Source: Aegilops tauschii subsp. strangulata
Lineage: Eukaryota > Streptophyta > Magnoliopsida > Poales > Poaceae
DNA length: 64,000 nucleotides
Assembly: GCF_002575655.3 (NCBI RefSeq)
Contig: NC_053039.3
Location: 241,654,622-241,718,621 of the forward strand
Reading direction: 5' to 3'
In this document: one piece after another, positions 7,804-39,203 of the stretch
Layout of the letters: each line of letters begins with the position of its first letter
Position numbering within the stretch: the stretch's first letter is position 1
Position numbers and translations under genes: made by a program
The notes under the pieces: model-generated
What the model was told of the DNA's origin: nothing
The model's database searches: none
The model's input: only the letters and a program-made list of their open reading frames with translations

Positions 7804-8401
7804 TGATGAGGACATAGACCTGGGGTAGGGTAATAGGCCTGACCTATACGTCCTACCTAAGGTCCTTGTCTTAGAAGCAAAGAAGGTCAAGAGTAAATAG
7901 GGAGGGCCCAACAAAGGTGTCGAGTGCAATCCACTCGAACTACCATTCACTCGGAGACCCCTCCTTCTTTAGGTGACTCGACCACTCAACCATTCGACCA
8001 TGTAAAAGACCACTCAACGTACAGAAGACCTAAAGCCACCCTGCGCAGCAACGGTCGGGCGTTTACTCATAGACATAATGATCATTTATAGCACTTTATT
8101 ATTGACGTTACCTGTAACGCTCTCGCTTTATGTACATTGAACCCTGTGTAACAGAGGGGAGCTGGGGTCCTGGCGCACTCTATATAAGCCACCCTCGTCC
8201 TCTGAGACAAGGGTTCGCACCCCCTCTAACACACACACGTATAATCCAGTCGACCGCCTCCGGGCACCAAGACGTAGGGCTATTACTTCCTCCGCGAAGG
8301 GCCTGAACTCGTAAAAACTCATGTGTACAACTTCGCCATAGCTAGGATCTTGCCTCTACATACCTACCCCCCATTCTACTGTCAGTCTTAGATCCACGAC
8401 A
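7804..8401 (+). repeat. Element B 5' LTR
   Basis: This 598-bp TG...CA repeat matches 27416-28011 and, on the other strand, 48201-48775. CTCTATATAAGCC near 8180 is a good TATA-type sequence, present in all three copies, so transcription probably starts shortly downstream. Confidence 0.9.
8179..8190 (+). promoter_or_regulatory. Candidate LTR TATA box (element B)
   Basis: The sequence CTCTATATAAGC lies in the LTR about 220 bp before its end. The same string occurs in the 3' LTR (near 27790) and inverted in element B2 (near 48413). Conservation in three copies supports its role as the core promoter, inferred from sequence only. Confidence 0.55.
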
Positions 8402-9513: not shown

Positions 9514-10794
9514 GTGCCCACACCTCCCCCGAGGAGTGGGTCATATGTGCCTCAGCAGCACGATGACAGACGCCCTCATAGTGGCGGACGAAGAATTCCA
9601 GTCGACCCCAGAGAGCCGGGCTTTGATGCGAGATATATTCTCGTTCAAGGTCTGGTTGACAGGAACAGGGCACACAGAGAGGGCCACGATAGAGATTATC
9701 CGACTGGCAGCAGAGTGCATGTTTCAGGTCCTGAGTGTTTCAGCAGAGCCATCAGAGCAGCAGTGATTCCTCCCAACTTCAGGTTGGCGACTGGAGTCAG
9801 CAAGTTCACTGGTGAGTCCAAGCCTGACACTTGGCTCGAGGACTACCGAGTGGCTGTACAGATCGGTGGCGACAATGATGAAGTGGCCATGAAGCACCTT
9901 CCTCTGATGTTGGAAGGCTCGGCCAGAGCGTGGTTGAATCAGTTAGCACCTGGCAGCATATATAGTTGGGAGGAACTTGCCCGATTGTTTGTTAGAACCT
10001 TTGAAGGTACATGCAAACGACCAGTGGGATTGACAGAGTTGCAGTCCTGTGTGCAGAAACCGAATGATACCTTGAGGGATTATATCCAGAGATGGATCAC
10101 ACTGCACCACACAGTAGAGAATGTGTCAGATCACCAAGCTGTTTGTGCCTTCAAGGAGGGTGTTAAGTACCGAGAGTTGAACCTGAAGTTCGGTTGGACA
10201 GGAGATATGTCCCTGAGTCGGATGATGGAGATCGCCACCAAGTATGCCAATGGTGAAGAGGAGGACCGACTCCGGAGTGGCAAGCACAAAACAGTCGCCC
10301 ACGAAATCGGAGGAGGGAATTCCAGTCGGAAACAGAAACGCAAGGCCGAACCAGCAGCTCCTGGTGAAGCTTTAGTTGTGGCCCAAGGGAAGTTCAAGGG
10401 GAAGCCCAAAGGGCCATGGAACCCCAAGAAAGTTAAAGATCAAGATGGGAATGATGTGTTGGATTTACCATGCCACATTCATACCAAAAAAGATGAAGAG
10501 GGTAATCTCATTTACCCTAAACACACCACTCGACAGTGTCGGCTCCTGATCCAGCAGTTCCGAGAGAAACAACCCAAGGAGAAAGAAAAGGAGTCGGATA
10601 AGGGTGATGATAAGGAAGAAGATGATGAAGGTTTTCCCAATGTCAATTCCACTCTGATGATTTTTGCTGATGTTGAAAGCAAAAGTCGACTGAAAGTTAT
10701 CAACAGAGAGGTGAACATGGTTGCTCCGGCGACACCAAGAAGTGGTCCCAGACTGCCATCACATTCGACCAGTCTGACCATCCAGCACGTATAG
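9514..10794 (+). pseudogene. gag: Element B Gag (capsid) region
   Basis: Gag is the structural protein that would package element RNA in cytoplasmic particles. The frame of 426 codons has a retrotransposon Gag domain at about residues 95-235, with the signature stretch FTGESKPDTWLEDYRVAVQ and later EGSARAWLNQLAPGSIYSWE. A basic Lys-rich segment follows at about 265-310. A Cys/His stretch around residues 315-345 (CHIHTKKDEEG...HTTRQC) could be a degenerate zinc knuckle. The last ~30 residues after NMVAPATP look frame-shifted. The first codons up to about residue 60 also look out of frame, so the nominal ATG is unlikely to be the original start. It lies just before protease-pol. Confidence 0.85.
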
Positions 10795-11345: not shown

Positions 11346-12578
11346 TCATCCGGTGAAACCAAACCGATTCATATTCATCCCACCGATCCTAATGCTGCTC
11401 CTACTCATATTTCAACTTCACTCGACAGCACATAGGAAGAAGCGCTCATCCAGTTCCTCGGTGAGAACTGGGACATCTTCGCATGGAAACCTTCTGACAT
11501 GCCAGGTGTACCCAGGGGACTGGCTGAGCATCGTTTGCGAGTCGACTCGAAGGTAAAACCGGGCAAGGAACATCTTCGACGGTCCGCCGTATAGAAGAGA
11601 AAAGCAATTGGTGAGGAAGTGGCTCGGCTCCTGGCAGCTGAGTTCATCTGAGAGATTTACCACTCCGAGTGGCTCGCCAATGTTGTCATGGTCTCCAAAA
11701 AGGACGATTCACTTCGCATGTGCATTGACTTCAAGCATATCAATCGGGCCTGCCCGAAAGATCATTTCCCTCTCCCCGGCATCGACCAAATTGTCGACTC
11801 AACTGCGGGGTGTGAGCGATTGTCTTTTCTGGACGCCTATTCCGGGTATCATCAGATCCGACTGTATGGACCCGATGAGATAAAAACGGCTTTCATCACT
11901 CCATTCGGATGCTTCTGTTATGTCACCATGCCATTCGGCCTGAAGAACGCCGGAGCCACATTCATGAGGATGATTCAGAAGTGTTTGCTCACTCAAATCA
12001 GTCGGAATGTGGAAGCATACATGGATGACATTGTGGTCAAGTCACGAAAGGGTTCCGACCTGCTGACTGACCTTGCTGAAACTTTTGCCAACCTCAGAAG
12101 GTATGATATCAAGCTTAATCCATCAAAGTGCACATTCGGAGTTCCTGGCGGAAAGTTACTCGGTTTCCTCGTTTCCGAACGAGGGATCGACGCTAACCCA
12201 GAGAAAGTTGGTGCTATACTCCAGATGAAACGCCCTGTGCGTGTGCATGATGTCCAGAAGCTTACTGGTTGTTTGGCCGCCTTGAGTCGATTCATTTCTC
12301 GCCTCGGTGAAAAGGCATTGCCTCTTTACCGACTGATGAAGAAGTCTGATAAGTTCGAGTGGACTCCTGAAGCTGATGCAGCGTTAGCAGAGCTCAAAGC
12401 CCTGCTTTCCACCCAACCGGTGCTCGCTGCCCCAATCAGCAAAGAGCCTTTACTGCTTTACATTGTAGCCACTGGACAAGTTGTCAGTACAGTACTCATG
12501 GTCGAGCGGGAAGAAGAAGGAAAAGCCTATAAAGTTCAGCGCCCAGTATATTATGTTTCTGAAGTTCTGACTCCATAG
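11346..12578 (+). pseudogene. pol: Element B reverse transcriptase and start of RNase H
   Basis: The RT would copy element RNA into DNA. Open coding runs 11688-12578. It shows CIDFKHINRACPKDHFPLP, LDAYSGYHQIRL, FGLKNAGATF and the catalytic YMDD at 12018-12029. The connection domain (KLTGCLAALSRFISRLGEKA) follows, then the start of the first RNase H (EFTPEADAALAELK-type, seen as FEWTPEADAALAELKALL). The segment 11346-11687 is coding-like but frame-broken, with weak remnants of the region before the RT fingers. The frame closes with a TAG at 12576-12578, again explained by CAG to TAG. Confidence 0.9.
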
Positions 12579-14719: not shown

Positions 14720-15928
14720 CAGTGGGTGGCTTAGCTGCGAATCCGTTTCGTCTAAGTTTATAAAACCCTACCGAGTGGTGAGCAAGCCTCTCACTCGGGA
14801 GCTTAGCTGCGAATCCGTTTTGCCTAAGTTTGAAAAATCCTACTGAGTGGTGAGCAAGCCTCTCACTCGGAGGCTTAGCTGCGAATCCGTTTCGCCTAAG
14901 TTTGAAAAATCCTACCGAGTGGTGAGCAAGCCTCTCACTCGGGGGCTTAGCTGCAGTCCAGTACTCGCCTAAGTTTGAAAAATACTACCGAGTGGTGAGC
15001 AAGCCTCTCACTCGGGGGCTTAGCTGCAGTCCAGTACTCGCCTAAGTTTAAAAAATCCTACCGAGTGGAGAGCAAACCTCCCACTCGAGGGCTTAGCTGC
15101 AGTCCAGTACTCGCCTAAGTTTAAAAAATCCTACCGAGTGGAGAGCAACCCTCCCACTCGAGGGCTTAGCTGCAGTCTAGTACTCGCCTAAGTTTAAAAA
15201 ATCCTACCAAGTGGAGAGCAACCCTCCCACTCGGGGGCTTAGCTGCAGTCCAGTACTCGCCTAAGTTTAAAAAAATCCTACCGAGTGGTGAGCAAGCCTC
15301 CCACTCGGGGGCTTAGCTACAGTCCAGTACTCGCCTAAGTTTGAAAAATCCTACCGAGTGGTGAGCAAGCCTCTCACTCGGGGGCTTAGCTGCAGTCCAG
15401 TAGTCACCTAAGTTTGAAAAATCCTACCGAGTGGTGAGCAACCCTCTCACTCGGGGGCTTAGCTGCAGTCCAGTACTCGCCTAAGTTTAAAAAAGCCTAC
15501 CGAGTGGAGAGCAACCCTCCCACTCGAGGGCTTAGATGCAGTCCAGTACTTGCCGAAGTTTGAAAATTCCTACCAAGTGGTGAGCAAGCCTCTCACTCGG
15601 GGGCTTAGCTGCAGTCCAGTACTCGCATAAGTTTGAAAAATCCTACCGAGTGGTGAGCAAGCCTCTCACTCGGGGGCTTAGCTGCAGTCCAGTACTCGCC
15701 TAAGTTTGAAAAATCTTACCGAGTGGAGAGCAACCCTCTCACTCGGGGGCTTAGCTGCAGTCCAGTACTCGCCTAAGTTTAAAAAATCCTACCGAGTGGA
15801 GAGCAACCCTCCCACTCGGGGGCTTAGCTGCAGTCCAGTACTCGCCCTAGTTTAAAAAACCCTACCGAGTGGAGAGCAACCCTCCCACTCGGGGGCTTAG
15901 CTGCAGTCCAGTACTCGCCTAAGTTTGA
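14720..15928 (+). repeat. Tandem array of ~73-bp units with internal hairpins (about 16 copies)
   Basis: The units contain GGGGGCTTAGCTGCAGTCCA, then CGCCTAAGTTTGAAAAATCC, then CCGAGTGGTGAGCAAGCCTC followed by TCACTCGG. Successive copies of GGCTTAGCTGC start at about 14728, 14800, 14873 and 14945, so the period is 72-75 bp. The segment CCGAGTG...CACTCGG can pair within each unit. The first three units carry GCGAATCCGTTT instead of GCAGTCCAGTACT. Two sub-variants (GTGGTGAGCAAGCCTCT and GTGGAGAGCAACCCTCC) are interleaved. The array sits between pol and the end of the antisense gene. Confidence 0.95.
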
Positions 15929-16257
15929 AACACATTCCTATCCGCAGGTATGACGAGGTGCAGGTCCACTGCCACCTACTCCTCGGAGCTGTGGTACAAG
16001 TACAATGTATGCTCCATTCCTATCCGCAAGGACGACAAGGTGCAGGTCGACTGCAACCTTCTCCTCGGAGCTACGCCACAAGTACAACGTACGCTCCATC
16101 CCTATCCACAAGGACGACGAGGTGCAGGTCGACTGCAACCTTCTCCTCGGAGCTACACCACAAGTACAACGTACGCTCCATCCTCATCCGCAAGGACGAC
16201 GAGGTGCAGGCCGACTGGAATCTCCTCCTCAGAGCTGCATCTCAAGTTCAAAGATTA
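15929..16257 (+). repeat. RPL26: Tandem array of an 82-bp unit derived from a ribosomal protein L26 gene fragment
   Basis: There are about four copies. The string CCTCGGAGCT starts at 15981, 16063 and 16145, and its variant CCTCAGAGCT at 16227, an exact 82-bp period. In its own frame each unit encodes SSELRHKYNVRSIPI followed by (R/H)KDDEVQV. This matches the conserved stretch of eukaryotic ribosomal protein L26 (uL24 family), roughly residues 45-67. Because 82 is not a multiple of three, each copy shifts frame, so the array cannot encode a continuous L26 repeat. I read it as a captured host-gene fragment amplified at DNA level. It directly follows the 73-bp array and lies just beyond the antisense gene's 3' end. 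Confidence 0.85.
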
Positions 16258-17660
16258 TTCCGAGTGAGGAACAAAACCCACTCGAAGGCAAACACAAGCA
16301 TATTCCAAGATAAACCAAGTTCAGAAAAATCCTAAGGTTTCGGACCGCATATCAAAAGTACTCGAGCATCAAGCCCGAAGAAGTTTAACGATTACACAAT
16401 CACTCGGCATTCCGAGGCAAATAAAGGTGGAGCATAATGTTTTTTGGTCACTCGTCAGGAGAAGGACTGGCTGGGTCGCAGAAACTGTCAAGGTCTATGC
16501 TGTCTGCGATGCGAGTGGCGGCGTCAAGGAAAGTGTCCATGAAGGACTGGAAAGTGTGCCTTTTTGTGTTAGCAACCTTGAGCTCCACCAGCTTGTCTTC
16601 TTTGACATCTTTGCAGTGCACTCGGACCAGAGACAGGGCGACGTTAGCACCGAAGTGAGCAGATGACTTCTTCCATTCTTGCACTCGGTCAGGTATTTGG
16701 TTCAGTCGGACCATCAGAGACTCGAGGTCTTGAGATAGTTCCGCCTGAGGCCAGAGTTCAGCATCAACCCGAGTCATCGCCGCCTTCAGGCGGGCAAGAT
16801 AAGCAACCGCGCTGTCTATGCGAGGCTCCAACCGCAGCACATTCATTGCAACATCATCCTTGACTGGGCAATTTATGGGATCGAGACCCGTCTCGACCCG
16901 CCCAGTTTCCGCTTCCCAGTCCTGGCAAAGTTCTGCACACTCGAGTGAATGGTGAGTCGACAATATAAAAAGACCTGTCAATCGACCATAACAGAGTCAG
17001 TCGAACGTCAGCTACCTTCAAGCTTTAAGACCAGTTTCACAGCAAGCTGGCCCAGATATGATTCCAACTCGCCTTTCTTGGCCTTGAGGCTCCCAATCTC
17101 GTCAGTCAGCTGGTCCTTGTCTTTCTCAGTCGTTCGACCTCCCGATTGGCGTCAGAGACAGCAGTCTTCAGTTTGGAGTTCTCTTCTTCTAACTTGCCGA
17201 CTGAAGCAAGCTTCTTGTCAGCAAGTGCAGTTTTCTCTCACGCTTCTTTCTGCGTGGCAGCAAGGTCCAGATCCTTCTTCTCCAGAGCCTGCTTCATTTT
17301 CTCTAAATAAATAACATTCTTCAGACGAGCTTGGAGTTGACGATTTTCACTACAAACATCTGCTCGAGTTGAGTCACTCGGTTCAAAAAATAGAAAGGAA
17401 AAGTGCCAGTTGTAAGATGGACAGTTGACGGTTGGTTACGTCCCATGGCAGCTACTTCGTCACGAGCAGTCTTGAGATTCTTCCTGGCCAATTCCAGATC
17501 AAGGTTGAGGCTGATTTGCTGCTTGTTCAGTGTAGAAAGCTGAGCCCCAAGATCACAAGATTTCTGCAGTCAATGTATAAGCCATATCAGTCGACAGAAA
17601 CAAAAGAACATCACGGTGAAAGTTACTCTAAGACTGCCGCCGAATCAAACATTCAACGGC

Positions 17661-18615: not shown

Positions 18616-20281
18616 TGATACGTCTCCAACGTATCTATAATTTTTGATTGTTCCATGCTATTATATTATCTGTTTTGGATGTTTTTGGGCTATGTTAAAC
18701 ACTTTTATATTATTTTTGGGACTAACCTATTGACCCAGAGCCCAGTGCCAGTTCCTGTTTTTTCCCTTGTTTCAGTGTTTCGAAGAAAAGGAATATCAAA
18801 CGGAGTCGAAACGGAATGAAACCTTCTGGAGAAGTTATTTTTGGAAGGAAAGCAACCCGGGAGACTTGGAATCCACGTCAAGAAAGCTACGAGGAAGGCA
18901 CGAGGCAGGGGGGTGCGCCCACCCCCTGGGCGCGCACTCCACCCTCGTGGGCCCCTCGTGGCTCCCCTGACGTACTTCTTTCACCTATATATACCCATAT
19001 ACCCTAAAATGATCGGGGAACAAAAGAGATCGGGAGTTCGCCGCCACAAGCCTCTGTAGCCACCAAAACCCAATCGGGACCCTGTTCCGGCACCCTGCCG
19101 GAGGGGGGAACCCTCACCGGTGGCCATCTTCATCATCCCGGCGCTCTCCATGACGAGGAGGGAGTAGTTCACCCTCGGGGCTGAGGGTATTTACCAATAG
19201 CTATGTGTTTGATCTCTCTCTCTCTCTCATGTTCTTGAGGTGATTCGATCTTGATGTATCGCGAGTTTTGCTATTATAGTTGGATCTTATGTTGCTTCTC
19301 CCCCTCTACTCTCTTGTAATAGATTGAGTTTTCCCTTTGAAGTTATCTTATCGGATTGAGTCTTTAATGATTTGAGAACACTTGATGTATGTCTTTCGTG
19401 GGATAACCGTGGTGACAACGGGTTATTCTATTGATTCACTTGATGTATGTTTTGGTGATCAACTTGTGGGTTCCACCCATGAACCTATGCATAGGGGTTG
19501 GCACACGCTTTCGTCTTGACTCTCCGGTAGAAACTTTGGGGCACTCTTTGAGGTTCTATGTGTTGGTTGAATAGATGAATCTGAGATTGTGTGATGCATA
19601 TCGTATAATCATACCCACGGATACTTGAGGTGACATTGGAGTATCTAGGTGACATTAGGGTTTTGGTTGATTTGTGTCTTAAGGTGTTATTCTAGTACGA
19701 ACTCTAGGGCTGTTTGTGACACTTATAGGAATAGCCCAACGGATTGATTGGAAAGAATAACTTTGAGGTGGTTTCGTACCCTACCATAATCTCTTCGTTT
19801 GTTCTCCGCTATTAGTGACTTTGGAGTGACTCTTTGTTGCATGTTGAGGGATAGTTATATGATCCAATTATGTTATTATTGTTGAGAGAACTTGCACTAG
19901 TGAAAGTATGAACCCTAGGCCTTGTTTCCTAGCATTGTAATACCGTTTACGCTCACTTTTACCACTTGTTACCTTGCTGTTTTTATATTTTCAGTTTACA
20001 AAAACCTATATCTACCATCCATATTGCACTTGTATCACCATCTCTTCGCCGAACTAGTGCACCTATACAATTTACCATTGTATTGGGTGTGTTGTGGACA
20101 CAAGAGACTCTTTGTTATTTGGTTGCAGGGTTGTTTGAGAGAGCCTATCTTCATCCTACGCCTCCCACGGATTGATAAACCTTAGGTCATCCACTTGAGG
20201 GAAATTTGCTACTGTCCTACAAACCTCAGCACTTGGAGGCCCAACAACGTCTACAAGAAGAAGGTTGTGTAGTAGACATCA
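18616..20281 (+). repeat. Element C 5' LTR
   Basis: This is 1666 bp, TGATACGTCTCCAACG...ACATCA. CCTATATATACCC at about 18984 is a strong TATA-like sequence repeated in the other LTR near 23980. The short open frames inside both LTRs (for example 18767-18970 and 19922-20185) have no recognisable domain. Confidence 0.93.
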
Positions 20282-20291
20282 AGCTCTTTTC

Positions 20292-20309
20292 TGGCGCCGT
20301 TGCCGGGGA
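20292..20309 (+). other. Element C primer binding site (tRNA-Asp type)
   Basis: TGGCGCCGTTGCCGGGGA lies ten bases after the 5' LTR. It is complementary to the 3' end of plant aspartate tRNA, the primer used by Athila-type and related elements. Confidence 0.85.
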
Positions 20310-20406
20310 GGTGAGTGCTTGAAGGTATATGCTTAGATCTTGCAATCGAATCTTTTAGTTTCTTGTTTTATCACTAGTTTAGTCTATAAAAGAAAACTAC
20401 AAAAAT

Positions 20407-21171
20407 ATGGAATTGAGTTTGTCTCATACGCTTCGTCTTTTTAATATCTTTCGTGAGTATGATGGAAAGGAAAATTGTGCCAAAGTGTTAGAAGAAGAAT
20501 GTATTAAAATGTTTCGCACTAAATCTTTGAATGATGAGCATGATTGCAATGTTGTTAGTATGAATTCTTTGAATACCCATGATGCTAATGATATGCAAAG
20601 CCACAAGCTTGGGGAAGCTATGTTTGATGAAGATGATATTTTTTGTCCCCCAAGCTTTGATGAGCAAATTTACTATGGTGAAAGCATGCCTCCTATCTAT
20701 GACGATTATTGTGATGACACGTATGCTATAAAGAATAATGATAACCATGAAACTTGTCATCTTGATCTTAATTTTCAATCACATGATAGTTATTTTGTTG
20801 AGTTTTGTCCCACTATTCCGAATGAGAAGAATTTTGCTTATGTGGAGAGTAGTAAAATATCTATGCTTGTAGATCATGAAAAGAATGCTTTAGGTGCTGG
20901 TTATATTGTTGAATTCATTCATGATGCTACTGAAAATTATTATGAGAGAGGATCATATGCTTCTACATATTGCAATAATATCAAGTTTCCTCTCTATGTG
21001 CTTAAAATCTTGAAGTTATGCTTGTTTTACCTTCCTATGCAAGTTGATTCTTGTTCCCATAAGTTGTTTGCTCACAAAATCCCTATGCATAGGAAGTGGG
21101 TTAGACTTAAATGTGCTAGTCATATTCTTCATGATGCTCTCTTTATGTTTCAATTCTTATCTTTTATGTGA
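20407..21171 (+). CDS. Element C single ORF, unknown function
   Basis: This intact frame of 254 codons begins about 100 bp after the primer site and ends in TGA at 21169-21171. The protein is acidic in its first two thirds, with repeated Asp/Glu patches (FDEDDIFCPPSFDEQ; IYDDYCDDTY). The C-terminal 60 residues are more basic and hydrophobic (LYVLKILKLCLFYLPMQ), ending HILHDALFMFQFLSFM. I see no Gag, protease, RT, RNase H or integrase motif. It occupies the place where gag would start, so it may be a remnant of a larger polyprotein or a protein kept by a non-autonomous family. The intact frame in an element otherwise without genes is notable. Whether it is expressed cannot be told. Confidence 0.6.
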   Translation: MELSLSHTLRLFNIFREYDGKENCAKVLEEECIKMFRTKSLNDEHDCNVVSMNSLNTHDANDMQSHKLGEAMFDEDDIFCPPSFDEQIYYGESMPPIYDDYCDDTYAIKNNDNHETCHLDLNFQSHDSYFVEFCPTIPNEKNFAYVESSKISMLVDHEKNALGAGYIVEFIHDATENYYERGSYASTYCNNIKFPLYVLKILKLCLFYLPMQVDSCSHKLFAHKIPMHRKWVRLKCASHILHDALFMFQFLSFM

Positions 21172-23632
21172 GCATCATTGAAATCATCATGCCTAGCTAG
21201 GGGCATTAAACGATAGCGCTTGTTGGGAGGCAACCCAATTTTATTTTAGTTTCTTGCTTTTTGGTTCTGCTTAGGAATAAATAATCTATCTATACTCTGG
21301 TTAGATGTGGTTTTATGTTTTAATTAGTGTTTGTGCCAAGTAGAACCTTTGGGAAGACTTGGGTGAAGTCTTTATGATCATGCTGTAAGAAACAGAAACT
21401 TTAGCGCTCACGAGATTAGCCAAAACTTTTTACTGGAGAGTGATATTTAGTTGATTCTTTTTGCAGATGATTACTAGACAAATTCCTCAGGTCCAACAAT
21501 TTATTTTAGAATTTTTGGAGTTCCAGAAGTTTGAGTTAGTTACAGATTACTACAGACTGTTCTGTTTTTGACAGATTCTGTTTTCTATGTGTTGTTTGCT
21601 TATTTTGATGAATCTATGGATAGTAAAATAGTTTATAAACCATAGAGAAGTTGGAATAAAGTAGGTTTAACACCAATATAAATAAAGAATGAGTTCATTA
21701 CAGCACCTTGAAGTGGTGTTTTGTTTTCTTTCGCTAAAGGAGCTCACGAGATTTTCTGTTAAGTTTTGTGTTGTAATTGAATACTATGAGAAGTTCGATA
21801 CTTGATAATTGTTTTGAGATATGAAGAGGGATATAATAAAAACTTTCATATAAAGTGCATTGATACTATGAGAAGTTCGATACTTGATAATTGTTTTGAG
21901 ATATGAAGAGGGATATAATAAAAACTTTCATATAAAGTGCATTGAATACTATGAGAAGTTCGATACTTGATAATTGTTTTGAGATATGAAGATGGTGATA
22001 TTAGAGTCATGCTAGTTGAGTAGTTGTGAATTTGAGAAATACTTGTGTTAAAGTTTGTGATTCCCGTAGCATGCACGTATGGTGAACCGTTATGTGATGA
22101 AGTCGGAGCATGATTTATTTATTGATTGTCTTCCTTATGAGTGGCGGTCGGGGACGAGCGATGGTCTTTTCCTACCAATCTATCCCCCTAGGAGCATGTG
22201 CGTAGTACTTTGTTTCGATAACTAATAGATTTTTGCAATAAGTATGTGAGTTCTTTATGACTAATGTTGAGCCCATGGATTATACGCACTCTCACCCTTC
22301 CACCATTGCTAGCCTCTCTAAATACCGCGCACCTTTCGCCGGTATCATACACCCACCATATATCTTCCTCAAAACAGCCACCATACCTACCTATTATGGC
22401 ATTTCCATAGCCATTCCGAGATATATTGCCATGCAACTTACCACCGTTCCATTTATTATGACACGCTTCATCATTGTCATATTGCTTTGCACGATCATGT
22501 AGTTGACATCGTATTTGTGGCAAAGCCACCGTTCATAATTCTTTCATACATGTCACTCATGAGTCATTGCATATCCCGGTACACCGCCGGAGGCATTCAT
22601 ATAGAGTCATATTTTGTTCTAAGTATCGAGTTGTAATTCATGAGTTGTAAGTAAATAAAAGTGTGATGATCATCATTATTAGAGCATTGCCCCAGTGAGG
22701 AAAGGATGATGGAGACTATGATTCCCCCACAAGTCGGGATGAGACTCCGGACGAAAAAAAGGAGGAAAAAAGAGGCCATAAAAAAGGAGAAAAGGCCCAA
22801 ATAAAAAAATATAAATAATAATAATAATAAAATGAGAGAAAAAGAGAGAAGGGGCAATGCTACTATCCTTTTACCACACTTGTGATTCAAAGTAGCACCA
22901 TGATCTTCATGATAGAGAATCTCCTATGTTGTCACTTTCATATACTAGTGGGAATCTTTCATTATAGAACTTGGCTTGTATATTCCAATGATGGGCTTCC
23001 TCAAAATTCCCTAGGTCTTCGTGAGCAAGCGAGTTGGATGCACACCCACTTAGTTTCTTTTTGAGCTTTCATATACTTATAGCTCTAGTGCATCCGTTGC
23101 ATGGCAATCCCTACTCACTCACATTGATATCTATTGATGGGCATCTCCATAGCCCGTTGATACGCCTAGTTGATGTGAGACTATCTTCTCCCTTTTTGTC
23201 TTCTCCACAACCACCATTCTATTCCACCTATAGTGCTATGTCCATGGCTCACGCTCATGTATTGCGTGAAGATTGAAGAAGTTTGAGACCATCAAAAGTA
23301 CGAAACAATTGCTTGGCTTGTCATCGGGGTTGTGCATGATTTAAATATTTTGTGTGATGAAGATAGAGCATAGCCAGACTATATGATTTTGTAGGGATAA
23401 CTTTCTTTGGCCATGTTATTTTGAGAAGACATGATTGCTTTGTTAGTATGCTTGAAGTATTATTGTTTTCATGTCAATATTAAACTTTTGTTTTGAATCT
23501 TACGGATCTGAACATTCTTGCCACAATAAAGCAGATATCATTGATAAATATGTAAGGTAGCATTCCACATCAAAAATTCTATTTTTATCATTTACCTACT
23601 CGAGGACGAGCAGGAATTAAGCTTGGGGATGC
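21172..23632 (+). other. Element C non-coding interior and purine tract
   Basis: I see no coding sequence. It contains a tandem repeat (21781-21995), an AAT-type microsatellite near 22805-22830 and a purine-rich tract near 22740-22860. It ends with AAGCTTGGGGATGC at 23619-23632, the priming purine tract abutting the 3' LTR. Confidence 0.7.
21781..21995 (+). repeat. Tandem repeat, 82-83-bp unit, about 2.6 copies
   Basis: ATACTATGAGAAGTTCGATA starts at 21781, 21863 and 21946. Copies are nearly identical, so the duplication is recent. It lies in the non-coding interior of element C. Confidence 0.9.
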
Positions 23633-25272
23633 TGATACGTCTCCAATGTATCTATAATTTTTGATTGTTCCATGCTATTATATTATCTGTTTTGGATGTT
23701 TATGGGCTTTATTAAACACTTTTATATTATTTTTGGGACTAACCTATTGACCCAGAGCCCAGTTCCTGTTTTTTCCCTTGTTTCAGTGTTTCGAAGAAAA
23801 GGAATATCAAACGGAGTCGAAACGGAATGAAACCTTCTGGAGAAGTTATTTTTGGAAGGAAAGCAACCCGGGAGACTTGGAGTCCACGTCAAGAAAGCAA
23901 CGAGGAAGGCACGAGGCAGGGGAGCGCGCCCTCCACCCTTGTGGGCCCCTTGTGGCTCCCCTGATGTACTTCTTTCACCTATATATACCCATATACCCTA
24001 AAACGATCGGGGAACAGAAGAGATCGGGAGTTCCGCCGCCGCAAGCCTCTGTAGCCACCAAAACCCAATCGGGACTCTGTTCCGGCACCCTGCCGGAGGG
24101 GGGAACCCTCACCGGTGGCCATCTTCATCATCCCAGCGCTCTCCATGACGAGGAGGGAGTAGTTCACCCTCGGGGCTGAGGGTATGTACCAGTAGCTATG
24201 TGCTTGATCTCTCTCTCTCGTGTTCTTGAGGTGATTCGATCTTGATGTATCGCGAGCTTTGCTATTATAGTTGGATCTTATGTTGCTTCTCCCCCTCTAC
24301 TCTCTTGTAATCGATTGAGTTTTCCCTTTGAAGTTATCTTATCGGATTGAGTCTTTAATGATTTGAGAACACTTGATGTATGTCTTTCGTGGGATAACCG
24401 TGGTGACAACGGGTTATTCTATTGATTCACTTGATGTATGTTTTGGTGATCAACTTGTGGGTTCCGCTCATGAACCTATGCATAGGGGTTGGCACACGTT
24501 TTCGTCTTGACTCTCCGGTAGAAACTTTGGGGCACTCTTTGAGGTTCTATGTGTTGGTTGAATAGATGAATCTGAGATTGTGTGATGCATATCGTATAAT
24601 CATACCCACGGATACTTGAGGTGACATTGGAGTATCTAGGTGACATTAGGGTTTTGGTTGATTTGTGTCTTAAGGTGTTATTCTAGTACGAACTCTAGGG
24701 CTGTTTGTGACACTTATAGGAATAGCCCAACGGATTGATTGGAAAGAATAACTTTGAGGTGGTTTCGTACCCTACCATAATCTCTTCGTTTGTTCTCCGC
24801 TATTAGTGACTTTGGAGTGACTCTTTGTTGCATGTTGAGGGATAGTTATATGATCCAATTATGTTATTATTGTTGAGAGAACTTGCACTAGTGAAAGTAT
24901 GAACCCTAGGCCTTGTTTCCTAGCATTGTAATACCGTTTACGCTCACTTTTACCACTTGTTACCTTGCTGTTTTTATATTTTCAGTTTACAAAAACCTAT
25001 ATCTACCATCCATATTGCACTTGTATCACCATCTCTTCGCCGAACTAGTGCACCTATACAATTTACCATTGTATTGGGTGTGTTGGGGACACAAGAGACT
25101 CTTTGTTATTTGGTTGCAGGGTTGTTTGAGAGAGACTATATTCATCCTACGCCTCCCACGGATTGATAAACCTTAGGTCATCCACTTGAGGGAAATTTGC
25201 TACTGTCCTACAAACCTCTGCACTTGGAGGCCCAACAACATCTACAAGAAGAAGGTTGTGTAGTAGACATCG
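23633..25272 (+). repeat. Element C 3' LTR
   Basis: This is 1640 bp and matches 18616-20281. The main differences are short deletions near 23760 and 23920 and scattered substitutions. Its downstream neighbour is the TCGGG target duplication. Confidence 0.93.
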
Positions 25273-26994
25273 TCGGGCAGACTTACTGGCTTTGGAGGTA
25301 GCTGCATCATCGTTTGGAACCCTATCGATATCCATATCAGTCGCGGCAGAGGCCGGGCTGGAAAATTTTCATCATCCACTCGGTCAGGATAAGAAAATCA
25401 GTCGAAGCAAGAAAAACACGGAAAGAACATTTACCCAGAAGCAACAGGAACATCCATCTTGATCTTAGGCAAGGTCTTCCGAGACTTCGAGGGGTTGATT
25501 TTGGGCTGCTTGGTGACTTTCTCCGCCAGCTTTGGAGTCGACGACCGAGCGCATTTCCGAGCCGGAGCGCTCGAGGCCACAGCCTTACCGTGCCTGCCCG
25601 CGGGATCATGATGCTGCTTGGATCGATGCTCCGAACAGGGTGGTGAGTCGGCTACCTCGTCGTCGTCGTTTGACTCGTCGCTCTCGTCTTCATCATCGTG
25701 GTCTGGCGACTCCCATTCATCACTCTCCTCCGCGCTATCCTCGCCCTCATGGTCCTGCTCTAGAGCTTGTTCGCCATTGGGCATTGAGTACATCTCTATG
25801 TAAATCTACAAGACAATAAGCTGAGTGGAAATCAGTTGGATTAGCAAATAGTCGGAAAATACATCCAAGTACAATCGGTGATAGCAGTCAAACCTTGTCT
25901 GGTTGGTTGCTGTCGCTGAAAGGGTCGACTCTCCTCGCGCCCCTGGGGTTGTCCTTGTTCCCCGTGATGCTCCTCAACTATTGGGCCACAGTTTTGGCCG
26001 GCACCTCCTCTGGATGAACCCGAGCAGTGTCGCCGGCCCCTGAGTACATCCACATGGAATGGTCACGGGCCTGGAGCGGTTGGATACGCCGACCGAGGAA
26101 CACCTCCAGCAGATCCATGCGGGTGACGCCTTGATTGATCAGCTGAACCACCCTCTCGACCAGCATGCCTGTCTCCGGCTTCTCCGCGGCGGTCACTTTC
26201 AACAAAGATGGAGTGTGAACACGATCAAAAGAAAAAGGAGGAAGTCAAGTCGACTGGCATGGGGTCGCGATATCCCGGCAGTAGAACCAGGTCGACTGCC
26301 AGCCCCAGACCGACTCAGGAAGAGTCATCGAAGGAAAGGAACTCCTCTTCCTCTTCTGGATACCCAGGCCCCCACACATCTGGATAACATGGGTTTTCTC
26401 GTCGTTCGAGTTTGCTTTCTTCACTGTTTGGGAGCAGATGGTGAAAATGTGCTTGAAAAGACCCCAGTGCGGTCGACACCCCAGGAAATTCTTGCACATG
26501 GACACGAATGCAGCAAGATATGTGATGGTGTTGGGAGTAAAATGATGGAGTCGAGCCCCGAACAAATTCAAGAAACCTCGAAAAAAGGGGTGTGGAGGAA
26601 GCGAGAAGCCGCACTCGACATGGGTGGCGAGCAGAACACACTCACCCGGTCGCGGCTGCGGCTCCGTTTCCCCCTCCGGCAACTGCGCAGCCTCATGGAT
26701 GATCAACCCTAACTCGGCCATCTCGTCCAAGTCTTCCTGCCGAAGCAAAGATCGAATCCAATCTCCCTGGATCCAACCCGACGGCAGCCCCGAGCGCGAT
26801 GAAGATCCCCGATTTGTCTTCTTGCTTTTCGCCGCCCCCGTCGCCTTCTTCGCGCGTTCCAGCGCCGCCGTTTTCTCCTTCCCCATGGCGGTGGAGCGGC
26901 AGCGTCGAGAGTGGAGAAGTCGGATGGGGTGAAGGAGCAAGAGGAAGAAGAAGGAGAATGGGCACGCATAGTGCAGACGCCTCGGCCTCGCCGC

Positions 26995-27000
26995 TTTTAA
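26995..27000 (-). promoter_or_regulatory. Candidate TATA box of the antisense gene (element B)
   Basis: The minus strand reads CCTTTAAAAGCGGC about 110 bp before the ATG at 26886. The same TTAAAA is at 49182-49187, 114 bp before the ATG of the copy in B2. Conserved spacing and a CT-rich leader between support a dedicated antisense promoter. Confidence 0.45.
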
Positions 27001-27399
27001 AGGCCCACTTCCGAGTGGCTGACGCGTGGGTCCGGGCGATCCTGTCAAATCCCTCAACAGTCACACACGGGATATGTGGCGAAAAAGGTGGCACGGAAAT
27101 CGAAACATCATGTTTATCCACTCCGCTTACCACAGCGCGCTCCACGTGGCGCGCTTCCACCGAAATTTCGAATCCCGTGAAATCGGGGACCCTCTGCAAC
27201 CGATCACGCCAAAGATTTCACGTCAAAGACAACACTCGACGGGTGACGTTATAAAAACCAATCGGCAATTTCTGAATCGATCAAGGCGACTGAAATGAAG
27301 CCGAAGTTCCAACACTGGCCTCCGTTCAGAGATGAATTCTTGAGAAAGGCAAGAGTCAAAGAAAGATCAACTTCAACCTTCTTTTCACTCGGACCTCAA

Positions 27400-27415: not shown

Positions 27416-28011
27416 TGATGAGGACATAGACCTGGGGTAGGGTAATAGGCCTGGCCTATACGTCCTACCTAAGGTCCTTGTCTTAGAAGCAAAGAAGTTC
27501 AAGAGTAAATAGGGAGGGCCCAACAAAGGTGTCGAGTGCAATCCACTCGACCTACCATTCACTCGGAGACCCCTCTTTCTTTAGGTCACTCGACCACTCA
27601 ACCATTCGACCATGTAAAAGACCACTCGACGTACAGAAGACCTAAAGCCACTCTGCTCAGCAACGGTCGGGCGTTTATTCACAGACTTAATGATCATTCA
27701 TAGCACTTTATTATTGACGTTACCTGTAATGCTCTCGCTTTATGTACATTGAACCCTATGTAACGGAGGGGATCTGGGGTCCTGGCGCACTCTATATAAG
27801 CCACCCCCCTCCTCTGAGACAAGGGTTCGAACCCCCTATAACACACACGTATAATCCAGTCGACCGCCTCCGGGCACCGAGACGTAGGGCTATTACTTCC
27901 TCCGCGAAGGGCCTGAACTCGTAAAAACTCGTGTGTACAACTTCGCCATAGCTAGGATCTTTCCTCTACATACCTACCCCCCATTCTACTGTCAGTCTTA
28001 GATCCACGACA
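27416..28011 (+). repeat. Element B 3' LTR
   Basis: This is 596 bp from TGATGAGG to CACGACA and pairs with 7804-8401. Most differences between the two copies are C/T or G/A transitions. Confidence 0.92.
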
Positions 28012-28310: not shown

Positions 28311-28625
28311 CACTACTGGAATCAGCTAATTTGCCATCTGCCAGCTCTTTGCCGTCTGCTAGCTGACGGCAAAGAAGCTCTTTGCCATCAGCTACCCAAA
28401 AGCAGACGGCAAAGAAAGGGCAGACGGCAAAGAAGCTCTTTGCCGTCCGCCAGCGGACGGCAAAGATTCCTTTGCCGTCCGCTGGCGGACGGCAAAGAGT
28501 GAGGTGGCCCCCACACCCCGCCCATTTTTGAAAAACTTAACGGGCCACCTCTTTGCCGTCCGCTAGCAGACGACAAAGAGGCAAAAAAGCGGACGGCAAA
28601 GGGGGGCGGACGGCAAAGAGCCTAC
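28311..28625 (+). repeat. CACTA left terminus and subterminal repeats
   Basis: The terminal CACTA is followed by repeated TTTGCCGTCTGC/GCAGACGGCAAA blocks, many arranged head to head (for example CCGTCCGCTGGCGGACGG near 28478). In En/Spm the subterminal repeats bind the element-encoded TnpA; the same role is inferred here. Confidence 0.9.
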
Positions 28626-29360: not shown

Positions 29361-30320
29361 ACCCCGAAGCCCCGACCCCGAAACAGCACCCCGACCCCGA
29401 CACGGCACCCCGAGACCGACACGACACCCCGACCCCGAGACCCCGACCCCGACCCCGACCCCGACACCCCGACCCCGAGCCTGACCCGACACCCCGACCC
29501 CGACACTGACACGACACCCCGACCCCGACCCGGCACCCCGACCCGACACCCCGACCCCGAGACCCCGACCCCGACACGGCACCCCGAGACCGACACGACA
29601 CCCCGACCCCGACACGGCACCCCGAGACCGACACGACACCCCGACCCCCGACACGACACCCCCGACACCCCGACACCCCAACCCCGAGACCCAGACCCAG
29701 ACCCCGACCCCGACCCCGACCCCGACACCCCGACCCCGAGCCTGACCCGACACCCCGACCCCGACACCGACACGGCACCCCGACCCCGACCCGGCACCCC
29801 GACCCGACACCCCGACCCCGAGACCCCGACCCCGACACGGCACCCCGAGACCGACACGACACCCCGACCCCGACACGGCACTCCGAGACCGACACGACAC
29901 CCCGACCCCCGACACGACACCCCCGACACCCCGACACCCCGAACCCAAGACCCCGACCCCGACCCCGACCCCGACACCCCGACCCCGAGCCTGACCCGAC
30001 ACCCCGACACCGACACGGCACCCCGACCCCGACCCGGCACCCCGACCCGGCACCCCTACCCCGAGACCCCGACCCCGACACGGCACCCCGAGACCGACAC
30101 GACACCCCGACCCCGACACGGCACCCCGAGACCGACACGACACCCCGACCCCCGACACGACACCCCCGACACCCCGACACCCCGACCCCGACACCCCGAC
30201 CCCGACCCCGACACCCCGACCCCGAGCCTGACCCGACACCCCGACCCCGACACCGACACGGCACCCCGACCCCGACCCGGCACCCCGACCCGACACCCCG
30301 ACCCCGAGACCCCGACCCCG
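29361..30320 (+). repeat. CCCCGA-based satellite with ~250-bp higher-order units
   Basis: Built from 6-bp words (CCCCGA, CCGACA, CCGAGA). The landmark GACCCCGAGCCTGACCCGAC occurs at 29471, 29732, 29981 and 30218, giving higher-order spacings of 261, 249 and 237 bp. Each is 12 bp shorter than the last. Spacing in multiples of three keeps all frames open on both strands, which explains the 300-420-codon frames here. They have no domain content. Confidence 0.95.
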
Positions 30321-30740
30321 AAAAGGTGTTCTTTGGCCTTCCAGAAGCCGACGGGGTCATATATTTGTGAATTATTAGTTAGGTCATATATCTTTCGATT
30401 TTGTTATGAAAAACATCATATATAATTGTGTTGATCGGGTAGTTTTAAATGTGCAGTTGTTTCATCACTGCGAGGTTTGGTGTTCGACGACCTCGCCGTG
30501 CGTTTGACGAGCTCTGCCCCTTCGTTCGTGGGTGAGCACAAATGACATGTCCTCCTCCCCCATTAATTATTTGATCTATTCCGATGAAACTTGATAGCTA
30601 GATATATATGTGTCTTGAATCATCAGTATGCGTAACCAATATGTGTCTCCCGTTCGAAAGCGTCATAGTTATAAATATGCATGCATTTGCATATTTATAA
30701 CCTTGATTCTTTTGAATTGTCCAACGCTATCCATGGACAG

Positions 30741-37394: not shown

Positions 37395-38360
37395 TCACGG
37401 TAAGTTTCTCTAGTGTTTTGCTTAACAAATGCATAAAGACCTAGACTTAGCTTTATTTCCTCCAATATGCTTACCATAATGACCTAGAGTTAGCTTATTT
37501 TCCTCCAAAATGACCCATTTTACCTAGGTTAGCTTATAAATGATGCAGTTCATCCAAGTTAGCTCAAAAATGACCCATTTTACCTACATTAGCTCCTAAA
37601 TGATCCATTTTACCTACATTAGCTTTAAAATGGCCCATTTCACCTAGGTTAACTCCAAAATGACCCATCTTACCTAGGTTATCTCATAAACGATCCATTT
37701 CAACTAATTTAGCTCATAAACGATCCATTTGACCTAAGTGAGCTAAAAAACGATCCATTTCACCTAAATTAGCTCTTAAATGATCCATTTCACCTAAGTT
37801 AGCTCAAAAAGATCCATTTCAACTAAATTAGCTCATAAATGATCCATTTCACCTAAGTTAGCTCAAAAACGATCCATTTCAACTAAATTAGCTCAAAAAT
37901 GATCCATTTCAACAAAGTTAGCTCAAAAATGATCCATTTCAACTAAGTTAGCTCAAAAACGATCCATTTGACCTAAGTGAGCTAAAAAACGATCCATTTC
38001 ACCTTAGTTACCTCAAAAACGATCCATTTCAACTAAGTTAGCTCAAAAACGATCCATTTCAACTAGGTTAGCTCCAAAATGACCCATTTCACCTTACTTA
38101 GCTCAAAAACGATGCCCTTCACCTTAGTTAGCTCATAAACGACCCATTTCAACTAAGTTAGCTCATAAATGATCCATTTCAACTAAGTTAGCTCATAAAC
38201 AACCCATTTCAACTTAGTTAGCTCATATATGATCCATTTCACCTAAGTTAGCTCATAAATGACATATACTTCTTGTTCTAGTCTTCTTCTTGTTCTAGTC
38301 TTCTTCTTGTTCTAGTCACCTATTTCTAACTTTCTTATTTACCATTTTGCAGATTTCATT
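37395..38360 (+). repeat. CACTA 3' tandem array, ~30-bp unit (about 25 copies)
   Basis: From about 37509 to 38262, units of the form GATCCATTTCAACTAAGTTA plus GCTCAAAAAC repeat with mild divergence. A further three copies of an 18-bp TTGTTCTAGTCTTCTTC-type unit lie at about 38271-38316. No coding sequence is seen. Confidence 0.93.
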
Positions 38361-38665: not shown

Positions 38666-39203
38666 GGCTCTTTGCCGTCTGCCACCGACGGCAAAGAGCC
38701 TTTGCCGTCTGCCGCAGACGGCAAAGAAGCCACGTGGCAGCCAACTGTGCTTCCTGGGAGCTGACCCATTTGGTCAGTTTGCCTACAGTGGCAGACGGCA
38801 AAGACTTTGCCATCTGTGGCAGACGGCAAAGAACCTGCACTTTGCCATCAGTGGCAGACGGCAAAGAACCTGCCATCTAGTGACGTGTAGATGACATCAT
38901 AAGGCGGACGACAAAGACCAAAGGCTCTTTGCCGTCTGCGGCGGACGGCAAAGGTTTGCCGTTAGCCACTTAACGGACTGACATCGCAAATATTGCCGTC
39001 CGCCCTCTTTGCCGTCCGCCGCAGACGGCAAAGAGCCTTTGCCGTCCGCCGCCAGGAAGCAGACGGCAAAGCAGCTGTTTACCGTAGCCTTCTTTGCCGG
39101 AGCCTTTTGCCGTCCGCGGCTGATGGCAAAGGTCTTTGCCATCCGCCTTTCGAGCCTTTGCCGTCCGCCATGGCAGACGGCAAAGTAGCTGTTTCCTATA
39201 GTG
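38666..39203 (+). repeat. CACTA right terminus and subterminal repeats
   Basis: Many TTTGCCGTCTGC and GCAGACGGCAAA motifs in both orientations end with the inverted terminal repeat whose last bases are TATAGTG. They mirror the left end and are the expected transposase-protein binding sites. Confidence 0.93.

What the first reader, a model, noticed from the sequence alone, without database searches (positions are those of the whole stretch)
15929..16257. Ribosomal protein L26 gene fragment captured and tandemly amplified inside a Tat retrotransposon
Each 82-bp unit encodes, in its own frame, the conserved L26 stretch SSELRHKYNVRSIPI plus KDDEVQV. Four copies follow at exactly 82 bp. Since 82 is not a multiple of three, the copies fall in successive frames, so the host peptide is not being kept as a repeat protein. 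This points to host exon transduction followed by DNA-level amplification (template slipping during reverse transcription is one route). It sits directly after another tandem array in the same spacer, so this spacer seems prone to repeat growth. I know of no description of this, but cannot search.
Basis: partly seen in the sequence, partly recalled or inferred. Interest (0 to 1): 0.8.

Follow-up and report, generated by a model that had tools for sequence, protein, structure and literature searches.

The report
Ribosomal gene piece multiplied inside retrotransposon
A jumping element in a large grass genome picked up a 104-letter piece of the plant's own ribosomal protein L26 gene, strung it head to tail into a repeat array and spread it, which shows where one of these otherwise unexplained retrotransposon repeat arrays came from.

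Summary
Window 15933-16236 holds 3.7 units of 82 bp. Unit 16062-16130 encodes 22 of 23 residues of uL24/RPL26 35-57 (E 3e-9); its DNA matches the only RPL26 gene detected in the genome at 87% over 75 nt.

Relatives show an older form: a 104-bp unit equal to RPL26 CDS nt 82-185, typically [105-185][82-185]n[82-132]. The 82-bp unit is that minus 22 nt, CDS 92-173. 40 of 40 further loci picked by downstream flank carry an array. An exact 22-mer of the gene occurs 2,123 times. The element has Tat/Retand features: a TRP28 antisense ORF and a 73-bp repeat array.

Unexpectedly, common differences between units are mostly synonymous in the RPL26 frame (8:2, against 14:64 for rare ones, p 1.6e-4), in none of the five other frames (post hoc). 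One multiplied fragment does not predict this; several RPL26 donor sequences would.

Gene capture and Tat-type 3' arrays are each known. A host gene piece as the array unit I did not find in nine literature searches.

The parts
15933..16236 (+). RPL26-derived tandem array, period 82 bp, 3.7 copies
   Evidence: TRF; RPL26 CDS alignment
15933..15967 (+). 5' partial unit, RPL26 CDS 138-171
   Evidence: (row WIN)
15979..16049 (+). unit 1, RPL26 CDS 102-172, 82% identical to host gene
16057..16131 (+). unit 2, RPL26 CDS 98-172, 87% identical; encodes SSELRHKYNVRSIPIHKDDEVQV
16139..16213 (+). unit 3, RPL26 CDS 98-172, 84% identical
16225..16257 (+). decayed last partial unit, then junction back into 73-bp-like sequence (TATTCCGAGTG)
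   Evidence: alignment with 104-bp family edges
14728..15930 (+). 73-bp tandem array of the element, 16.5 copies; units hold a hairpin
   Evidence: fold of 15770-15930, (z -3.1)
7804..8401 (+). 5' LTR of the host element
   Evidence: 95.8% identical to 27416-28011 over 598 columns; TG..CA ends
27416..28011 (+). 3' LTR of the host element
9514..10794 (+). gag ORF (Retrotrans_gag)
   Evidence: E 4e-13
11688..12578 (+). reverse transcriptase / RNase H piece
   Evidence: RVT_1 E 6.5e-29
16448..16981 (-). antisense ORF of 177 aa downstream of the array, no family above cut-off
26245..27057 (-). antisense ORF with TRP28 domain (PF04195), a Retand-lineage mark
   Evidence: E 5e-18
18616..25271 (.). 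younger LTR element nested inside the host element (LTRs 96.5% identical; TCGGG on both sides)

Best explanation
In an ancestor of this Tat/Retand element family, the reverse transcriptase left the element RNA inside the 73-bp repeat tract, copied RPL26 mRNA in sense orientation, and returned to element RNA. RPL26 sequence nt 82-185 became joined head to tail (185|82), giving arrays of the form [105-185][82-185]n[82-132]. The array was then inherited through transposition. In one branch a 22-nt deletion made the 82-bp unit (CDS 92-173), and the whole array turned over to that form; a further branch gained 1 bp (83-bp unit, one array with 15.8 copies). The array is not kept as protein; it behaves as a DNA/RNA-level repeat. 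Shown for the loci examined: homology, unit limits, a shared position and 3' edge, deletion order, spread, sense orientation. Inferred: template switching during reverse transcription as the route (rather than DNA-level repair), and its timing.
For: Protein and DNA match to RPL26. Unit = CDS 82-185 in 30 distinct loci of the 104-bp family; 49 distinct loci, the window included, of the 82-bp family. 73-bp array upstream in 75 of 79. 3' edge within 2 mismatches of TATTCCGAGTG in 78 of 79; L058 has 4, with a 1-nt gap. 20 of 20 and 20 of 20 further loci picked by downstream flank carry an array. Empty-site pattern 0 matches against 52 for the filled-site pattern at up to 3 mismatches. The 22-nt deletion, with GT at both ends, is readable in L112, L114, L117, L125. 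Flank tree of 59 loci parts the two unit types by one branch once L001 is relabelled. The array has the same sense as gag, RT and RPL26 mRNA. Published model for Tat arrays: abnormal strand transfers between co-packaged RNAs (PMC7004042, passage).
Against: No element copy without the array was found, so the pre-capture state was not seen. The 5' edge differs between subfamilies (at least five forms by eye). In one form the 7 nt CTCCGAG are common to the 73-bp unit and RPL26 nt 105-111, but only 4 of 7 loci printed keep it exactly at the junction and 4 of 7 in the preceding 73-bp unit; it may be secondary. The 185|82 joint has no shared bases that I could see. The donor gene found is intronless, so an mRNA template cannot be told from genomic DNA. 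At E 1e-3 two blast pieces reach beyond 82-185 (L077 76-185, L099 98-206); at E 1, 8 of 62 rows also show short 70-77% pieces at CDS 191-226 or 371-413, taken as chance. In L107-L126 the edge motif is weaker (12 of 20 within 2 mismatches, 8 at 3-4). Mostly synonymous old differences do not follow from one copy multiplied.
Confidence: 0.72

Rival explanations
1. More than one RPL26 donor: the array was built, or later overwritten, from several different RPL26 mRNAs (paralogues, alleles, or the same gene at different times), by end-to-end jumping of the reverse transcriptase between fragments with the same ends, or by homologous template switching onto host mRNA. This refines rather than replaces the capture model.
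For: Common unit variants outside CpG transitions are 8 synonymous: 2 non-synonymous in the RPL26 frame, rare ones 14:64, p 1.6e-4; the five other frames give 0-4 of 10. Subfamily majorities differ at nt 105, 114, 117, 132 and 144, all third positions. Units of one array can differ like genes do, e.g. L011 units 1 and 2: 7 synonymous, 2 not; all 30 family-B arrays summed: 282 synonymous, 409 not, pairwise and not independent (my sum), against 14:64 for rare variants.
Against: Test chosen after seeing the data and rests on 10 variants. Subfamily majorities also differ at nt 100 (first position) and 143 (second position). Within single families the test is weaker: p 0.052 in A, 0.026 in B without CpG transitions. 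Single arrays show no bias (L077 9:60, L042 4:26). Rare variants at sites where host and family differ equal the present host base in 24 of 70, about one third as expected if all bases are equally likely, so no sign of recent exchange with today's gene. Only one RPL26 gene is detected in this genome. Identical 185|82 joints are easier to explain by duplication.
Confidence: 0.4
2. DNA-level origin: a small piece of the RPL26 gene was pasted into one element copy during break repair, and unequal recombination made the array.
For: Short shared sequence at one edge type and at the 22-nt deletion also suits end joining; donor intronless; copy number varies by whole units; near-identical neighbours exist (19 of 49 family-A loci, but 1 of 25 family-B loci, have an adjacent pair of 97% or more).
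Against: Sense orientation, position in the tract where Tat elements are known to make repeats, and the synonymous pattern fit RNA templates at least as well.
Confidence: 0.25
3. Rolling-circle copying of a 104-nt circular RNA (for instance a back-spliced exon of an intron-bearing RPL26 gene).
For: 104-nt period, 185|82 joint without visible shared bases, and start and end inside the unit as expected from a circle.
Against: The RPL26 gene here has no intron in its coding region; any tandem array has arbitrary edges.
Confidence: 0.07
4. The L26 peptide is kept as a protein by the element.
For: Third-position bias; 47 of 49 family-A arrays have one frame open throughout.
Against: Periods 82, 83 and 104 shift the frame at each unit; 14 of 30 family-B arrays have no open frame; the 185|82 joint often reads TAG in the L26 frame (by eye).
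Confidence: 0.03

Closest known systems
[quoted passage not shown]
   Same: Same part of the element, same kind of variable short tandem arrays, family specific. PMC11963269 (abstract, discussion section and passages seen) reports arrays in about half of recently active Retand elements; PMC7004042 (passages seen) reports arrays as seeds of satellites.
   Different: [quoted passage not shown] here the unit is traced to a named host gene.
Host gene capture by plant LTR retrotransposons (maize Bs1 with H+-ATPase; rice and sorghum captured genes)
   Same: A host coding piece carried inside an LTR element (PMC13317346, passages; PMC3726574, passages; PMC11963269 discussion).
   Different: The passages seen do not mention tandem multiplication of a captured piece; the words 'tandem' and 'ribosomal' do not occur in the main text of PMC3726574. 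Here a 104-nt piece is a multi-unit array in many copies.
Abnormal template switching in Triticeae elements (Veju, BARE-2)
   Same: Foreign sequence entering an element during reverse transcription (PMC13317346, passages).
   Different: Those inserts are unknown DNA or another element, not a host gene array.

Membership tests
Retand lineage (Tat, Ty3/gypsy) | antisense ORF with TRP28 (PF04195) between pol and 3' LTR | tested here: met
   window 26245-27057 (-), E 5.3e-18
Retand lineage (Tat, Ty3/gypsy) | tandem repeat arrays between pol and 3' LTR | tested here: met
   73-bp and 82-bp arrays
Retand lineage (Tat, Ty3/gypsy) | long pol-3'LTR region | tested here: inconclusive
   long, but the pol end was not fixed and a nested element of about 6.7 kb lies inside
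Retand lineage (Tat, Ty3/gypsy) | position in reverse-transcriptase phylogeny | not tested
   no reference RT set held; RT domain present
Fatima family | nucleotide identity to named Fatima elements | not testable with these tools
   no Fatima sequence held; only passages of a paper on it seen (PMC3129301)
Host gene captured by LTR retrotransposon | significant match to a functional host gene | tested here: met
Host gene captured by LTR retrotransposon | piece lies between the LTRs and is shared by copies at one position | tested here: met
   LTRs for the window copy; shared edge 78 of 79; flank-picked loci. LTRs of the other copies were not looked for
Host gene captured by LTR retrotransposon | relatives without the piece show the empty site | tested here: not met
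   none found: pattern 0 matches, 40 of 40 flank-picked loci filled; capture may predate all copies held, so this does not exclude it
Host gene captured by LTR retrotransposon | loss of introns shows an RNA template | not testable with these tools
   donor CDS is intronless

The most novel reading that the evidence does not exclude
The array is a record of repeated copying from RPL26 mRNA. Once the element carried RPL26 homology, its reverse transcriptase could switch onto that abundant mRNA again, joining or overwriting units with sequence from different RPL26 transcripts over millions of years. This would make it a retrotransposon repeat array periodically renewed by a host messenger, and a store of extinct RPL26 alleles.
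Probability: 0.33. Interest if true: 0.82.

Novelty: new variant of a known kind. Interest (0 to 1): 0.64.

Why it matters
The origin of the tandem arrays in Tat/Retand elements, which can seed satellite DNA, is stated as unknown in the 2025 Retand survey (PMC11963269, discussion). Here one is traced base by base to a host coding region, with longer unit, deletion step and expanded form all present in one genome. It also means about 2,100 exact 22-nt matches to an essential ribosomal-protein message, most of them probably in elements that plants normally silence with small RNAs, so whether such siRNAs touch RPL26 is directly testable.

Tried and rejected
Protein-level selection on the array: rejected because of shifting frames and stops. 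Recent exchange with today's RPL26 gene: no support (24 of 70); the single unit L076-1 with two nearly host-private bases is one case only. A conserved core at nt 151-172: lower divergence at non-CpG sites is p 0.18 in family A and 0.006 in B, not pursued. Higher-order structure in the 16 units of L103: identities at lags 1-8 are flat, 0.92-0.95. Positional orthology of units: first-first and last-last between loci exceed first-last only slightly. RNA fold of the L26 array: z -2.9, not pursued. Family labels (47/32) were wrong for L001 and L094 and were corrected to 49/30; the tree used the old label for L001. Dating: LTR identity 95.8% means roughly 1.6 My and an A-B flank distance of about 0.5 (branches summed by hand) roughly 20 My at a recalled rate of 1.3e-8; rough only.

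Full report
What is there. At 15933-16236 there are 3.7 copies of an 82-bp unit. In its own frame unit 16062-16130 reads SSELRHKYNVRSIPIHKDDEVQV, 22 of 23 residues of uL24/RPL26 positions 35-57 (E 3e-9, Pfam Ribosomal_L26 E 6e-4, under the curated cut-off). The genome has one detectable RPL26 gene, on C3, with 474 nt of coding sequence and no intron (in one search all 12 candidates were scored and one matched). Units match it at 82-87%.

The element. LTRs 7804-8401 and 27416-28011 are 95.8% identical and have TG..CA ends; the 5-nt flanks are TCGCT and CTGCT, not a perfect target duplication. Gag and RT lie on the + strand. A TRP28 (PF04195) antisense ORF lies at 26245-27057. [quoted passage not shown] A younger element is nested at 18616-25271. 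The L26 array follows 16.5 copies of a 73-bp repeat and is itself followed by 73-bp-like sequence, so it lies within that repeat tract.

Relatives. DNA search scored 40 of 1,432 candidates for the 82-bp array and 40 of 782 for a second type found through Pfam L26. After removing repeats of the same place, 79 distinct loci, the window included, were compared: 49 with period 82 and 30 with period 104. The 104-bp unit equals RPL26 CDS nt 82-185, and arrays typically read [105-185][82-185]n[82-132]. Two blast pieces at E 1e-3 go beyond 82-185 (L077, L099). The 82-bp unit lacks 22 nt (174-185 plus 82-91 of the next unit), leaving CDS 92-173; the joint is best read in L112, L114, L117 and L125. Since the 104-bp form contains RPL26 sequence that the 82-bp form lacks, 104 is the older. 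By spacing no array mixed the two among the 79, so whole arrays turned over. Three more loci show an 83-bp form, one with 15.8 copies (L103).

One place, one origin. The 3' edge returns to 73-bp-like sequence: within 2 mismatches of TATTCCGAGTG in 78 of 79 loci, L058 being the exception. The 5' edge has several forms; one joins at CTCCGAG, common to the 73-bp unit and RPL26 nt 105-111, exact at the junction in 4 of 7 loci printed. The 73-bp repeat lies within 500 nt upstream in 75 of 79; L089 and L099 hold under 30 nt upstream, L088 and L091 hold over 310 nt without it. Further loci picked by downstream flank all carry an array: 20 of 20, taken from the 40 places scored, whose query began 21 nt inside the decayed last unit; and 20 of 20 taken from the best of 381 pattern matches, places already held left out. 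A pattern for the uninterrupted 73-bp unit had no match, while the filled pattern had 52. So the copies examined seem to descend from an ancestor that already had the array; the empty site was not seen.

Scale. A 22-nt stretch of the gene (CDS 151-172) occurs 2,123 times exactly, 1,052 forward and 1,071 reverse, with none for the reversed control. The host gene is one of these. I did not check each place; the first 100 listed form 47 clusters, and the 53 gaps within clusters are all within 1 nt of multiples of 82, 83 or 104. The longest exact match to RPL26 is 21 nt or more in 47 of 49 family-A and 24 of 30 family-B loci, up to 35 nt.

Not a protein. Periods 82, 83 and 104 change frame at each unit. 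A frame stays open through 47 of 49 A arrays but only 16 of 30 B arrays; the A unit has few stops to start with, so open frames are weak evidence.

An unexpected pattern. If one captured fragment had been multiplied and then drifted, old differences between units should fall on all codon positions. Instead common variants outside CpG transitions are 8 synonymous to 2 not, against 14 to 64 for rare ones (275 units, p 1.6e-4). The five other frames give 0-4 of 10, and the result holds over twelve threshold settings with p between 1.6e-4 and 1.4e-3. Third positions vary more also at non-CpG sites (p 0.006 in A, 0.028 in B). Between subfamilies the commonest base differs at nt 105, 114, 117, 132 and 144, all third positions, and also at nt 100 (first position, near the deletion joint) and 143 (second position). 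Units in one array can differ like two genes: L011 units 1 and 2 have 7 synonymous and 2 other non-CpG differences. Since the array cannot be read in this frame throughout, the pattern suggests that unit diversity came from functional RPL26 sequences, that is, more than one donor molecule. Against this: the test followed the data; ten variants carry it; within single families it is weaker (p 0.052 and 0.026); some arrays (L077 9:60, L042 4:26) show no bias; and today's gene is not an obvious later source (24 of 70).

Mechanism. Most likely the reverse transcriptase left element RNA within the 73-bp tract, copied RPL26 mRNA and returned. The sense orientation and the published model of abnormal strand transfer for Tat arrays (PMC7004042, passage) support this. 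Break repair at DNA level is not excluded because the donor has no intron. The 185|82 joint could come from a tandem duplication, end-to-end template jumping, or a circular template.

Literature. Nine full-text searches and passages of PMC13317346, PMC3129301, PMC3726574, PMC4290129, PMC7004042 and PMC11963269 showed gene capture by LTR elements and Tat arrays, but no host-gene-derived array. 'RPL26' with 'LTR retrotransposon' occurs in no paper held. Subscription papers are mostly missing from the library and I read no paper whole, so this is a limited negative.

Verdict. A real, well-resolved case: new variant of a known kind, of interest chiefly as a traced origin for a Tat array and as a testable link between element arrays and an essential host message.

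Noticed in passing
window 14728-15930: The 73-bp units have an inverted repeat CCGAGTGG..CCACTCGG; 161 nt of the array fold at -55.5 kcal/mol, z -3.1 against shuffles. Possible structural role in the RNA.
   Followed up: partly
window 18616-25271: Nested LTR element, LTRs 96.5% identical, TCGGG on both sides, with its own 82-bp tandem array of different sequence at 21776-22001.
   Followed up: partly
L103 (G000:C1:48707450-48709100), 282-1593: 83-bp L26 array of 15.8 copies, 1.3 kb long, the longest seen here; a possible satellite seed.
   Followed up: partly
L016, L018, L020, L022 (G000:C1:36687700-36702000): Four very similar array copies within about 12 kb, suggesting local duplication of an element piece.
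   Followed up: no
L076 first full unit: Differs from its neighbour unit only at CDS 114 and 126, both to bases otherwise rare in units and present in the host gene; could be a short exchange with RPL26.
   Followed up: partly
L088, 1-311: DNA directly upstream of the array reads by eye like the end of pol, with the 73-bp array missing; probably an internal-deletion copy.
   Followed up: no
window 29370-30321 and 37503-38262: Two other tandem arrays (CCCCGA-type, and a 30-bp unit with 25 copies) outside the element.
   Followed up: no
window 28330-28498 and 38670-38878: Short tandem motifs of the TTTGCCGTC / GACGGCAAAG kind, which I recall from CACTA transposons.
   Followed up: no
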